Made by a program: the position numbers and the translations under genes. A DNA stretch of 54,127 bases from an uncultured Clostridia bacterium (GTDB taxonomy: Bacteria > Bacillota > Clostridia > Oscillospirales > Acutalibacteraceae), in NCBI GenBank assembly GCA_945787805.1, contig CALZID010000013.1:1-54127 (forward strand). The letters run 5' to 3'. The notes beneath the pieces were generated by a model. It was not told the DNA's origin and searched no databases. It saw nothing but the letters and a program-made list of their open reading frames with translations. This document shows positions 14,180 through 16,320 of this stretch, in pieces (positions within the stretch are counted from its first letter, which is position 1; every line of letters begins with the position of its first letter).

Positions 14180-14270
14180 GCAGAAGTACTCAAGTTGGTG
14201 ACGAGGCGCCCCTGCTAAGGGCGTAGGCCGGGAAACCGGTGCGAGAGTTCGAGTCTCTCCTTCTGCGCCA
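14180..14270 (+). tRNA. tRNA-Ser (anticodon GCU), CCA encoded
   Basis: Class II tRNA. Acceptor GCAGAAG pairs with CTTCTGC, with a G discriminator and CCA encoded at 14268-14270. The anticodon arm CGCCC-CTGCTAA-GGGCG presents GCT. The variable arm GCCGGGAAACCGGT and T arm GAGAGTTCGAGTCTCTC are complete. Its last 23 bases recur at 14419 and 16174, marking it as the target of repeated insertions. Confidence 0.97.
14248..14270 (+). repeat. tRNA-Ser 3'-end repeat, copy 1 (in the intact tRNA)
   Basis: Last 23 bases of tRNA-Ser(GCU), from the T loop TTCGAG to the CCA. The identical 23-mer is present at 16174-16196, and 21 of its last 22 bases at 14419-14440. I interpret it as the attB/attL position of a site-specific insertion. 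Confidence 0.9.
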
Positions 14271-14313
14271 AATAATCTCATACACCTTTTGGTGTGTGGG
14301 ATTATTTTTTTTG
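14271..14313 (+). terminator. Terminator behind tRNA-Ser(GCU)
   Basis: AATAATC..CATACACC, TTTT loop, GGTGTGTG.GATTATT, followed by a run of eight T. The right half (GGTGTGTGG) is repeated in the hairpin at 14439-14478. Confidence 0.85.
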
Positions 14314-14418
14314 TAAAGAGACTCGAACTCGTTTCGTCCATGTGCGACGGTTCGCCGCAGGCGGAGGAGCACGGACACATAATACGATTTTGCGAAGCAA
14401 AGACAAGGCAAAGCCTTG
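14314..14418. other. Gene-free spacer between tRNA-end copies 1 and 2
   Basis: About 100 bases without a gene. It begins with AGAGACTCGAACTCG, a near reverse complement of the tRNA T arm, then TCGTCCATGTGCGACGG, and ends in a perfect hairpin GACAAGGC-AAA-GCCTTGTC (14402-14420) that abuts copy 2. The TCGTCCATGTGCGACGG motif returns after copy 2, so this looks like an empty or degraded cassette. Confidence 0.6.
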
Positions 14419-14461
14419 TCGAGTCTCTCCTTCTGTGCCAATAAAAGCCATGCATCTTTTG
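14419..14461 (+). repeat. tRNA-Ser 3'-end repeat, copy 2, with hairpin arm
   Basis: TCGAGTCTCTCC through a CCA end (one C-to-T change against the tRNA), continuing into ATAAAAGCCATGCATCTTTTG. The whole 43 bases match copy 3 at 16175-16217 except for that one base. Only the 3' part of the tRNA is present, so it is not a functional tRNA. Confidence 0.9.
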
Positions 14462-14478
14462 GTGTGTGGCTTTTATTC
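14439..14478 (+). terminator. Terminator-like hairpin after copy 2
   Basis: AATAAAAGCCATGCATC, TTTT loop, GGTGTGTGGCTTTTATT, with several G-T pairs. The left arm matches copy 3's hairpin and the right arm matches copy 1's, so it looks like a recombinant of the two. Confidence 0.65.
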
Positions 14479-14489
14479 GTTTTTGTTAG

Positions 14490-14523
14490 AGAGACGAGAA
14501 CTCGTTCGTCCATGTGCGACGGG
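14490..14523 (+). repeat. Shared left-end motif of the two cassettes (second copy)
   Basis: GAGA..GA.AACTCG.TTCGTCCATGTGCGACGG occurs after tRNA-end copy 2 and, with small changes, at 14319-14352 after copy 1. It lies at the same distance beyond the hairpin in both. This could be the conserved end of the inserted elements or recombinase arm sites. Confidence 0.6.
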
Positions 14524-14559
14524 ATGTCGAAAATATTTTGCATTGTGCCTTTTAAAATA

Positions 14560-14588
14560 TTGTAATTACTCACGCTATATGATATAAT
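14560..14588 (+). promoter_or_regulatory. Promoter of the sialidase-like gene
   Basis: TTGTAA, 17 bases, perfect TATAAT, 36 bases before the start at 14624. It lies inside the islet, so the cargo gene carries its own promoter. Confidence 0.8.
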
Positions 14589-14623
14589 TTTTGTATGGTA
14601 ATTTTATACGGAGAAGGTATTTT

Positions 14624-15976
14624 ATGAAAAAATTTTTATGTGTTATTTTGTGCGTCCTGCTCATTTTCACCATGTTCGCAGGATGCTCCCCAAAGAACAA
14701 ATTGCCCTTTACGGGCGGAGATTATTCCATACCGGAACTGGATTTGAGTGTTATGCCCGAGGAGTATGCGAATACACAATATGAATATCTTTATGACCTT
14801 GCTATTGTAGATAATTCAAAAGATTATATGGCGCACCCGGACTCCGTTTTGCTGAAAAACGGCAACATTCTCACTATGTATCCCGAAGGTCACGGCAAGG
14901 GTGCAGTCTGCACGAAAATCAGTGCTGACGGCGGTTTGAGTTGGAGTGACGGCGTAAAAAATGCGCCGTCCAGTTGGAAAAACTCCCGTGAAACTCCCAC
15001 TGTTTACCGTTTGCGGTTTTCCGATGGCATTACAGAGGATAAACTGATTATGATTTCCGCAAATCCAAAGTGGGGTGACGAACTGACCGACGGCGGATTT
15101 AATTGCTCCGTTTCTACCGACGAGGGCGAAAGTTGGACGGAGTTTGAAACATTTTATGATGTAAACAGCGATACACCTGTTATACCGATTGTCGCCATGT
15201 CAAGCCTAACACAAATTAAGGAAAACGGCAAGTTTGTTGACAAATGGATGGGACTTTTTCATGATGCGGATTTTTATAATTACAAAACAATTTTAACCTT
15301 TGACGAAGACGGAAATCCTAAGTGGAGCGCCCCTGAAAAATATTTTGCGCAATACCGTGAAATTGAGCGAAAATCTAACATGTGTGAAGTTGAAGTAATA
15401 AGAAGTGAACAAGGTCAAGGCGACAGACTTTGCCTTATTTCACGTAGCAACTCCAAACAGATGAATTCTCTTATTTCATTCTCTGACGATGAGGGAAAAA
15501 CATGGAGTCCGCCTGTTGAAGTTCCGGCGGCGCTGAACGGAGAGCGACACAAGGCGGAGTACACCCACGACGGCAGACTGTTCATTACTTTCCGTTCTAT
15601 TGAAAGAGGAAGCATCGCAGAACTTAATGCCTCAAAAGATGTTACAGGCGGTTGGGTGAGCGAAGGCTGGATTGCCTGGGTCGGAACCTTTGAGGATTTG
15701 GAACAGGGTAATGAGGGACAGTACCGGATTAAACTTGCTCACATCTATAAAGATAGGCAGAAAAATCCGGAATACTGCGCTAATGCAGACACCGGATATT
15801 GCGGAAATGTTGTACTTTCGGACGGTACTATTGTAACCACAACTTATGGAAAATTTGACCCAAAAGACAAAGTAACTATTTACGGCACATTACGAACATA
15901 TATATGTTCAAAACGCATTAACCTTGCCCATACGGACGCTCTTGTTGAAAAACTAAAAGAAGAAAAAAGCAATTAG
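14624..15976 (+). CDS. Sialidase-superfamily (BNR/Asp-box) lipoprotein
   Basis: A 450-residue exported lipoprotein with a six-bladed sialidase-type propeller signature. The signal peptide is MKKFLCVILCVLLIFTMFAG, with the lipid-attachment Cys in FAGC. Asp-box repeats (S-x-D-x-G-x-S/T-W) appear as SADGGLSW, STDEGESW and SDDEGKTW, and the C-terminal GYCGNVVLSDGTIVTTTYG is typical of the superfamily. Whether it cleaves sialic acid is uncertain: I cannot assign the full arginine triad and Tyr/Glu pair. Other glycan-binding or hydrolase roles are possible. The ATG at 14624 has GGAGAAGG upstream. It is the only plus-strand protein gene in this part, flanked by tRNA-Ser 3'-end repeats, with its own promoter and terminator, suggesting acquisition as cargo. 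Confidence 0.85.
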   Translation: MKKFLCVILCVLLIFTMFAGCSPKNKLPFTGGDYSIPELDLSVMPEEYANTQYEYLYDLAIVDNSKDYMAHPDSVLLKNGNILTMYPEGHGKGAVCTKISADGGLSWSDGVKNAPSSWKNSRETPTVYRLRFSDGITEDKLIMISANPKWGDELTDGGFNCSVSTDEGESWTEFETFYDVNSDTPVIPIVAMSSLTQIKENGKFVDKWMGLFHDADFYNYKTILTFDEDGNPKWSAPEKYFAQYREIERKSNMCEVEVIRSEQGQGDRLCLISRSNSKQMNSLISFSDDEGKTWSPPVEVPAALNGERHKAEYTHDGRLFITFRSIERGSIAELNASKDVTGGWVSEGWIAWVGTFEDLEQGNEGQYRIKLAHIYKDRQKNPEYCANADTGYCGNVVLSDGTIVTTTYGKFDPKDKVTIYGTLRTYICSKRINLAHTDALVEKLKEEKSN

Positions 15977-15980
15977 AAAT

Positions 15981-16033
15981 AAATCCGCTGAAAAATCCTT
16001 ATTTATCAATGATTTCAGCGGATTTGTTTTTTT
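15981..16033 (+). terminator. Terminator of the sialidase-like gene
   Basis: A perfect 13-bp stem AAATCCGCTGAAA/TTTCAGCGGATTT followed by GTTTTTTTT, directly after the stop codon. Confidence 0.92.
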
Positions 16034-16173
16034 GTTCAAATTTAATTTGCGGTTTATTTTTGTAAAATGTGGTTTGTTTGCGTGAAAGTTGATGAAAGGC
16101 AAAAGTGCTGAAACCGTTGATATATAAGGGTTTGTGGGACTTTGTGGAAGTTGGTGAAATCCCTTTACCATAT
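16034..16173. other. Gene-free right part of the islet
   Basis: About 140 bases, T/G-rich on the plus strand. I see no gene, promoter or strong hairpin. It runs directly into tRNA-end copy 3 and would be the right end of the inserted cassette. Confidence 0.5.
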
Positions 16174-16217
16174 TTCGAGTCTCTCCTTCTGCGCCAATAA
16201 AAGCCATGCATCTTTTG
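16174..16217 (+). repeat. tRNA-Ser 3'-end repeat, copy 3
   Basis: The first 23 bases are identical to the end of tRNA-Ser(GCU), including GCGCCA; 16175-16217 matches copy 2 over 43 bases with one mismatch. No 5' tRNA half precedes it. It is the candidate attR of the islet. Confidence 0.9.
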
Positions 16218-16236
16218 ACGCATGGCTTTTATTTTT
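16197..16236. terminator. Hairpin AATAAAAGCCATGC/GCATGGCTTTTATT
   Basis: A perfect 14-bp stem around a short loop, then TTTT on the plus strand. If copy 3 marks the original end of the tRNA locus, this was the original tRNA terminator. It also faces the 3' end of the clpE operon, but lacks a good T run on the minus strand. Confidence 0.65.
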
Positions 16237-16320
16237 CTGTCTTTTATTTTGTTTGCACAGGCGGATGCTTAAGACTCTCTCCTACAAGTTTTTATTATTT
16301 TTTGTGATTTTGTCACAATA

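What the first reader, a model, noticed from the sequence alone, without database searches (positions are those of the whole stretch)
14248..16217. Three copies of a tRNA-Ser 3' end bracket cassette-like insertions
The last 23 bases of tRNA-Ser(GCU) recur exactly at 16174, and 22 bases of it at 14419 with one change. Copies 2 and 3 match over 43 bases, into the hairpin. Between them lies one complete unit: promoter, lipoprotein gene, terminator, in opposite orientation to the flanking protein genes. The right flanks of copies 1 and 2 resemble each other while the left flanks of copies 2 and 3 differ. This is what serial insertion of elements sharing one end would give. No recombinase is inside. 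tRNA-targeted, integrase-less cargo islets of this kind are little described in gut Clostridia.
Basis: partly seen in the sequence, partly recalled or inferred. Interest (0 to 1): 0.82.

Follow-up and report, generated by a model that had tools for sequence, protein, structure and literature searches.

The report
Self-matching insertions behind bacterial tRNA genes
Many genomes of one order of gut bacteria carry small folded DNA pieces, about 170 bases long, directly behind their tRNA and tmRNA genes; each piece holds a mirrored copy of its own host gene's arm and repeats that gene's end, which suggests an undescribed kind of insertion that spares the gene it enters.

Summary
It is a ~170-bp noncoding unit (14250-14419): tRNA tail, terminator, reverse complement of the host T-arm ("rc-arm"), folded core, then the next tail. 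The sialidase-like gene lies behind a second, truncated unit; the homologues examined elsewhere are not beside tRNAs. Six of 37 own tRNA genes have a tail copy; the same six have the rc-arm. Models of two core types match 36 of 398 and 115 of 300 family genomes. Hosts are 24 tRNA kinds plus tmRNA. Cores 92% alike occur behind different genes, each with that gene's own rc-arm and tail. Behind tRNA-Pro(GGG), type II units (4 of 4 with an identified host) mirror the anticodon arm and, where intact, repeat the tRNA from there; type I units (8 of 8) mirror the T-arm and repeat 22-23 nt. An empty and an occupied site with the same flank were found. Thirty tmRNA loci of other orders have no rc-arm. 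Best reading: integrase-less micro-elements inserting at arm sites used by tyrosine integrases, mobilised in trans, perhaps as a folded single strand. Mechanism inferred; no enzyme found; RNA versus single-stranded DNA undecided.

The parts
14180..14270 (+). tRNA-Ser(GCT), host gene of the array
   Evidence: ARAGORN
14243..14259 (+). T-arm of the host gene, the inferred insertion site (T-loop 14248-14254)
   Evidence: sequence; site inferred
14250..14270 (+). tail copy 1 (intact end of the gene)
14271..14312 (+). terminator-like hairpin of unit 1
   Evidence: sequence, by eye
14318..14331 (+). rc-arm 1: reverse complement of the host T-arm
   Evidence: 1 mismatch of 15 at +46
14336..14419 (+). 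type I core: H1 14336-14376, H2 14389-14401 (GCGAAGC mini-hairpin), H3 14402-14420
   Evidence: models and covariation; folds
14419..14440 (+). tail copy 2 (one change)
14441..14484 (+). terminator-like hairpin of unit 2
   Evidence: sequence, by eye
14488..14504 (+). rc-arm 2 (variant GAGACGAGAAC, also in several relatives)
14508..14522 (+). truncated core: 5' half of H1 only
14624..15976 (+). BNR/sialidase-like gene behind the truncated unit; not shown to be cargo
16174..16196 (+). tail copy 3, inferred to be the displaced native tRNA end
   Evidence: clpC side compared with G408
16197..16237 (+). terminator-like hairpin behind copy 3
   Evidence: sequence, by eye

Best explanation
The array is built from integrase-less micro-elements ("tRNA-tail units") that insert into an arm of a tRNA or tmRNA gene, usually the T-loop, sometimes the anticodon loop. 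SHOWN: a unit consists of host tail, terminator-like hairpin, reverse complement of the host arm and a conserved multi-hairpin core, followed by the displaced tail; units stack in tandem; sites are polymorphic; the rc-arm and the start of the repeat go with the arm used; closely similar cores occur behind different host genes. INFERRED: the unit is the recombining site of a mobile element. On one strand the rc-arm pairs with the next tail and closes a ring of hairpins, which rebuilds a double-stranded copy of half the chromosomal site, as folded attC sites do. A tyrosine-type recombinase acting in trans exchanges it at the arm. The gene survives because the unit brings, or copying creates, a second tail. 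How the rc-arm comes to match each new host is not explained by this alone; template switching between arm and rc-arm could correct it.
For: Own-genome census: 6 of 37 tRNA genes have a tail copy and the same 6 have an rc-arm at +46 to +53 (4 of the 37 had under 200 bp readable behind them). 92 of 101 type I matches in 64 fetched loci have a tRNA/tmRNA within 1500 bp upstream on the same strand; own rc-arm fit 13.95 of 17 vs 10.30 for other arms; own tail 16.22 of 18 vs 9.55. Pro(GGG): type II rc-arm maps to the anticodon arm in 4 of 4 units with an identified host, repeated suffix 38 and 42 nt in two; type I maps to the T-arm in 8 of 8, suffix 22-23 nt. Clean pair: 208 bp directly behind tRNA-Ser of empty G413 match (74.5%) the bases directly behind the second tail of G399. 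Cores 92% alike with each host's own rc-arm and tail: G371 tRNA-Ala and tmRNA; G422 tRNA-Ser and own tRNA-Ala. Covariation: type I 95.3% of cells paired vs 35-46% slid; type II 91.0% vs 31-43%. C-GNA-G triloops, very stable DNA mini-hairpins (PMC4686876, passages): 97 of 223 type I core hairpins vs 2 of 291 in the adjacent terminator region and 5 of 493 in shuffles; 135 on the tRNA strand, 0 on the other. Islander (PMC4383910, passages) names anticodon loop, T loop and T/acceptor junction as crossover subsites in tRNA genes.
Against: No recombinase was found in the units; only Y1 transposases and, in passing, PF05635 were searched for, not tyrosine recombinases or reverse transcriptases. The rc-arm is strictly best for its own host in 48 of 92 units, tied in 12, and another arm fits better in 32. 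Cores of one genome are not more alike (mean 0.475, different genes) than cores of different genomes of the genus (0.489, different genes), so recent spread within a genome is not the rule. The one 100% pair (G371 tRNA-Ala, G200 tmRNA) is with the inner half of a double core that has no rc-arm of its own. Type II cores carry GNRA-type tetraloops in P2 (30 of 38) and only 17 C-GNA-G of 114 hairpins, which looks more like RNA. Fold z-scores of the window unit: RNA -4.43, DNA plus strand -3.07, DNA minus strand -4.69. Phages, plasmids: no match; viral contigs: none with a tRNA. In Pro locus L356 no intact suffix is repeated and in L359 only 19 nt. A tmRNA pair that I first read as empty/occupied with one flank (G398/G426) has no blastn match beyond a few bases.
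Confidence: 0.45

Rival explanations
1. Passive model. No dedicated enzyme: an old structured sequence behind tRNA genes is copied between loci by gene conversion, multiplied or lost by slippage between tail repeats, and its inverted arms are kept perfect by template-switch correction.
For: Neighbouring units of an array are often nearly identical. Truncated last units recur. Template switching can make and maintain perfect hairpins (PMC8794818, abstract and start of introduction seen). In G200 the tmRNA T-loop carries the variant of its rc-arm, as if one had been copied from the other. Mean core identity is higher for the same gene within the genus (0.644) than for different genes (0.489).
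Against: Units would have to start anew behind 25 kinds of gene, each with matching rc-arm and repeat start. The anticodon-arm cases and the G413/G399 pair look like insertion. Clean loss by recombination between tails would, however, give the same pair.
Confidence: 0.3
2. Structured RNA. The units encode an RNA made from, or beside, the tRNA transcript (for example a processing decoy or regulator) whose closing stem must match the host arm.
For: Strong covariation, conserved unpaired blocks and GNRA loops in type II, G-U pairs at several positions, RNA z-score -4.43.
Against: The units read lie behind a terminator-like hairpin. 31 of 37 own tRNA genes show none. Type I loops are DNA-type triloops. 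No Rfam family covers the units searched. No expression data were available.
Confidence: 0.14
3. Relics of ordinary tRNA-targeted islands whose integrase and cargo were lost.
For: A tRNA gene plus a displaced 3' fragment is the island signature (PMC4383910, passages).
Against: The residue is the same folded core behind many kinds of gene, at about the same length, with an inverted arm. Ordinary relics would not share these.
Confidence: 0.05
4. REP-like elements moved by a Y1 (RAYT) transposase.
For: 23 of 39 genus genomes have a Y1_Tnp match, some of RAYT size. The units are hairpin-rich repeats.
Against: 10 of the 15 fetched Y1 loci were examined: two C-GNA-G hairpins, both over 1 kb from the gene, and no tRNA gene. 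Unit-bearing drafts G371, G327, G415, G417 and G422 have no match, though drafts are incomplete.
Confidence: 0.04

Closest known systems
tRNA/tmRNA-targeted genomic islands (tyrosine integrases; Islander, PMC4383910, passages seen)
   Same: Intact gene plus displaced 3' fragment; anticodon-loop and T-loop subsites; tandem arrays
   Different: About 170 bp, no integrase inside, related cores behind 25 kinds of gene, inverted copy of the host arm. Islander rejects candidates under 2 kb or without integrase, so such units would not be listed.
Integron cassettes, integrase-less cassette arrays (CALIN) and attC sites (PMC11641012 and PMC11389934, passages seen)
   Same: Tandem units, folded site with inverted arms, strand asymmetry, no integrase in the array
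   Different: Payload is a tRNA end and terminator; the tRNA gene would take the place of attI; site arms match the host gene; IntI was not searched for
Phage Ms6 integration in tRNA-Ala T-loops (PMC1762012, abstract and passages seen)
   Same: T-loop as site; small changes in the 7-bp T-loop of attP allow other tRNA-Ala T-loops, at lower efficiency
   Different: A phage vector that natively used one tRNA-Ala gene per species
MITEs (PMC11389934, passage seen) and REP elements (recall)
   Same: Short, noncoding, folded, presumably mobilised in trans
   Different: Found here behind tRNA/tmRNA genes, with a target-matched inverted arm
23S rRNA intervening sequences (recall)
   Same: Complementary arms that fit the host RNA; the PF05635 protein also occurs behind tRNAs here
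   Different: Not inside a mature RNA; complete short units code for nothing

Membership tests
tRNA-targeted genomic island | tDNA and cognate 3' fragment bracket the element | tested here: met
tRNA-targeted genomic island | integrase gene inside the element | tested here: not met
   units with the usual 150-200 bp spacing have no room for one; in the window's longer block the only long ORF on the plus strand is the BNR gene. Arrays with longer spacers were read by eye only
Integron cassette / CALIN | folded site with opposed arms in tandem array | tested here: met
   predicted folds and covariation; tandem arrays
Integron cassette / CALIN | attC boxes recombined by IntI | not tested
   no search for IntI and no recombination test
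Transposon with target-site duplication | fixed-length duplication flanking a constant element | tested here: not met
   repeat is 22-23 nt at Pro T-arms but 38 and 42 nt in two anticodon-arm cases, and the inserted part holds a host-specific rc-arm
REP/RAYT | linked Y1 transposase | tested here: inconclusive
   Y1 matches in 23 of 39 genus genomes; 10 loci examined, none with a tRNA gene
Known Rfam RNA | match to a curated family | tested here: not met
   no curated family over the units (window plus 18 loci); Gut-1 matches lie beside units or tRNA genes
23S rRNA IVS | lies within rRNA and is excised | tested here: not met
   units lie behind tRNA/tmRNA genes; excision not testable

The most novel reading that the evidence does not exclude
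tRNA and tmRNA genes of this order of gut Clostridia act as landing pads of a cassette system: folded single-stranded micro-elements recombine at the T-loop or anticodon loop of many tRNA genes through a recombinase acting in trans, and each restores the gene end it displaces. The tRNA gene plays the part that attI plays in integrons.
Probability: 0.3. Interest if true: 0.93.

Novelty: categorically new. Interest (0 to 1): 0.8.

Why it matters
If right, a large group of gut bacteria keeps an undescribed class of tiny elements at one of the most conserved gene sets, with insertions that rebuild their target. It would show how one kind of element can use some 25 kinds of target gene, explain 3' tRNA fragments in these genomes that island finders filter out, and offer a natural landing-pad system at tRNA genes. 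Even under the passive or RNA readings, two conserved folded families without an Rfam entry exist, one of them matched in over a third of the family genomes searched (115 of 300).

Tried and rejected
Sialidase gene as mobile cassette: set aside after the genus search and context check. Phage or plasmid carriage: no match in phages or plasmids and none to an exact type I pattern in viral contigs; the one viral match to a type II half-pattern (L366) has no tRNA gene. Faecalibacterium and Draconibacterium matches: no tRNA gene within 1.5 kb, read as chance. A ~90-bp target duplication (both terminators alike in L008 and L205): dropped, because many arrays have different terminators on the two copies and the Pro cases change the repeat length. 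RAYT/Y1 as mover: no association in the 10 loci examined. PF05635 as mover: behind tRNAs, but 11 of the 12 loci shown have no tail copy. Single-stranded DNA as certain: withdrawn. G398/G426 as empty/occupied pair: withdrawn after blastn and replaced by G413/G399. The 100% core pair as proof of host-specific flanks: withdrawn, because one partner is an inner core without rc-arm; the 92% pairs stand. Literature: ten answered searches of the held open library, only some aimed at the units, listed no paper that I recognised as describing them; I read passages of six papers and one abstract. Subscription papers and preprints are not covered.
Full report
WHAT IS THERE. tRNA-Ser(GCT) at 14180-14270 is followed by three copies of its 3' end: the gene's own end, 14419-14440 (one change) and 16174-16196 (exact). 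Shuffled downstream sequences gave no tail copy in 620 trials. Behind copies 1 and 2, after a terminator-like hairpin, lies the reverse complement of the host T-arm (14318-14331, 14488-14504), then GTCCATGTGCGACGG (14336 and 14508). Behind copy 1 the core is complete (hairpins H1, H2, H3). Behind copy 2 it stops after 15 bases and a sialidase-like gene follows (BNR_2). Behind copy 3 come a hairpin and the end of a clpC-like gene (its name is from reading the protein).

THE UNIT IS A FAMILY. The same core lies behind tRNA-Ala in the own genome and behind Glu, Lys, Thr, Ala and others in relatives, with an rc-arm and tail of that host. In the own genome 37 tRNA genes were examined (31, 6; 4 of them with under 200 bp readable behind). 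Six have a tail copy at +170 to +215 and the same six have an rc-arm at +46 to +53: Ser-GCT, Gln, Lys, Glu, Ala, Leu-GAG. The shuffle control of the 31 gave 0 of 620 tails and 4 of 620 rc-arms. A covariance model of 11 cores matches 36 of 398 family genomes at E <= 0.01, 18 of 135 genera. In 64 fetched loci it gives 101 matches at E <= 0.05; 92 have a tRNA or tmRNA within 1500 bp upstream on the same strand. Of the other 9, six lie in stretches that begin at a contig start, one (L064) has no tRNA gene upstream in the stretch fetched, and two are weak antisense matches in L068. Hosts are 18 tRNA kinds and tmRNA (printed before that script stopped).

SECOND TYPE. Own-genome arrays behind Gln, Lys and Glu carry another core. 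A model from 5 such cores matches 115 of 300 family genomes at E <= 0.001, 63 of 135 genera. Of 37 units counted (38 matches in 34 sources, one duplicate locus dropped), 29 have a tRNA or tmRNA upstream and 25 of these a tail copy directly after; 8 have no RNA gene found upstream in the stretch. This adds six tRNA kinds, so 24 plus tmRNA. A third type behind tmRNA was only read by eye (L266, L267, L148). Covariation is strong: type I 95.3% of cells paired against 35-46% when slid, 22 of 26 pairs with double changes; type II 91.0% against 31-43%, 31 of 39. Those alignments were fitted to the models, which leans towards such values; the alignment A3, made without a model, gave 91.2% against 37-47%. 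No curated Rfam family covers the units searched.

RANGE. tmRNA loci with at least 200 bp readable downstream: genus sample 4 of 18 with a tail copy and 4 of 18 with an rc-arm (three loci have both; L148 tail only, L149 rc-arms with degenerate tails); order-wide sample 3 of 24 with both (L253, L266, L267, all other families; 2 of the 24 are from the own family); other orders of the class 0 of 30 with an rc-arm and one distant weak tail match. tRNA-Ser(GCT) in the genus: 26 usable of 30 loci fetched (39 genomes searched), 11 with a tail copy, 7 with an rc-arm at a strict limit. Each search returns only its best-scoring loci, so these are not random samples. Of 19 loci with the exact type I pattern in named genomes, most are titled Clostridia, Oscillospiraceae or Ruminococcaceae MAGs.

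INSERTION. At tRNA-Ser, G413 has no unit and G399 one; 208 bp directly behind the tRNA of G413 match (74.5%) the bases directly behind the second tail of G399, so the extra piece is the 176 bp from tRNA end to tail end. Loss of a unit by recombination between tails would look the same. G408 (97% identical over the two tRNA genes) runs through one truncated unit into the clpC-like gene, which is 85% identical to that of the window; G422 has two whole units; G411 and G405 one whole and one truncated. So copy 3 of the window is most simply the displaced native end. The strongest single test is tRNA-Pro(GGG). In the four type II units with an identified Pro host the rc-arm is the reverse complement of the anticodon arm (12-14 of 14 bases); the repeated tRNA suffix is 38 and 42 nt in two, 19 in one, not recognisable in one. 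In the eight type I units the rc-arm is the T-arm and the suffix 22-23 nt. L345, without a tRNA gene in its stretch and so not counted, shows both kinds in one type II array, each followed by the matching start of repeat (by eye); so type II is not bound to the anticodon arm. Anticodon loop and T loop are crossover subsites in tRNA genes (PMC4383910, passages), and Ms6 shows that a T-loop attP can be redirected by small changes (PMC1762012, abstract and passages).

CORES ACROSS GENES. G371 tRNA-Ala and G371 tmRNA cores are 92% alike, as are G422 tRNA-Ser and own tRNA-Ala cores; each has its host's own rc-arm and tail. One pair is 100% alike (G371 tRNA-Ala, G200 tmRNA, shared from AGTCC to GCTTCG), but the tmRNA partner is the inner half of a double core without rc-arm. 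Mean identities: same genome, different gene 0.475; same genus, same gene 0.644; same genus, different gene 0.489; other genus, same gene 0.473; other genus, different gene 0.382. So inheritance by locus is clear, exchange between loci occurs, and cores of one genome are not more alike than cores across the genus. In G200 the tmRNA T-loop carries the variant of its rc-arm, which suggests copying between arm and rc-arm.

WHICH STRAND OR MOLECULE. Type I hairpins are dominated by C-GNA-G triloops: 97 of 223 core hairpins, against 2 of 291 in the adjacent terminator region and 5 of 493 in shuffles; all 135 counted with a lower stem limit are on the tRNA strand. GNA and GNNA loops make very stable DNA mini-hairpins (PMC4686876, passages). 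Against this, type II has 17 C-GNA-G of 114 hairpins (89 are triloops) and GNRA tetraloops in P2, 30 of 38. Fold z-scores: RNA -4.43, DNA plus strand -3.07, DNA minus strand -4.69. I leave the question open.

MECHANISM. Shown: discrete units at an arm of the gene, rc-arm and repeat start that go together, polymorphism, related cores behind many genes. Inferred: strand exchange at the arm by a recombinase in trans, with rc-arm and next tail closing a folded site that rebuilds half of the target, in the manner of attC sites (PMC11641012, passages). Not explained: how the rc-arm matches each host; template switching at inverted repeats (PMC8794818, abstract) could rewrite it. The passive model is the main rival. 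I did not search for tyrosine recombinases or reverse transcriptases.

THE GENE IN THE WINDOW. 36 of 39 genus genomes encode a homologue, 7 of them close (67-72%); none of 11 loci examined holds a tRNA gene, a Ser tail or the H1 motif. Other genes stand behind truncated units in relatives. These look like neighbours or hitch-hikers, not a defined cargo.

PF05635. A gene for a 23S rRNA IVS-type protein stands between terminator and rc-arm in L073. All 6 such matches in the own genome lie 198-391 bp downstream of a tRNA on its strand; 0.49% of strand positions lie within 600 bp. Of 30 family loci read, 12 lie so. Mostly there is no unit there, so I treat this as a separate, striking association.

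VERDICT. The reading as serial insertions sharing one end is partly right. The thing itself is larger and stranger than the finding: a family of self-matching, tail-restoring units behind tRNA and tmRNA genes.

Noticed in passing
own genome C3:83471, C5:497, C11:41087, C12:17376, C15:669, C18:21596; L073, L179-L184, L189-L192, L194, L195: PF05635 (23S rRNA IVS-type) genes stand about 190-400 bp behind tRNA genes: 6 of 6 in the own genome, 12 of 30 family loci read.
   Followed up: partly
L072:1314-1386 and L347:1382-1456 (over Rfam's cut-off); L266:1236-1310 and L341:1698-1768 (below it): Gut-1 RNA (RF01706) matches lie next to units or near tRNA genes. Hairpin arrays of similar look precede PF05635 genes; there C-GNA-G loops are mostly on the strand opposite the tRNA (15 of 18).
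   Followed up: partly
L066 (G200 tmRNA): The tmRNA T-loop carries the same variant as its rc-arm, unlike the relative G371 (L060); its last unit is a double core.
   Followed up: no
L070 (G271 tRNA-Glu): Array of period ~349 in which units also carry a second, long palindromic insert between tail and terminator.
   Followed up: no
L129 (G406 tRNA-Ser): Tail copies only at +1277 and +1463 with rc-arms at +1146 and +1334: about 1.1 kb lies between the tRNA and the first rc-arm, content not read.
   Followed up: no
L279, L285, L286: About 250-aa Y1 transposase of RAYT size; L285 is flanked by repeats resembling CACAAGGGGACGGTTCCTTGTGTT.
   Followed up: partly
G000:C5:69882-71168: Second BNR/sialidase-like paralogue of the window gene (60% identity, 1 stop in the frame).
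   Followed up: no
L366 (IMGVR_UViG_3300029305_011737): A viral contig carries repeated type II-like half motifs (TTAAGAAAACAG..CTGTTTTTAGC) without a tRNA gene in the stretch.
   Followed up: no
window 14488-14504 and G408, G411, G422, G426, G034: The rc-arm variant GAGACGAGAAC instead of GAGACTCGAAC recurs behind tRNA-Ser in several species, perhaps shared ancestry of the tRNA-Ser lineage of units.
   Followed up: no
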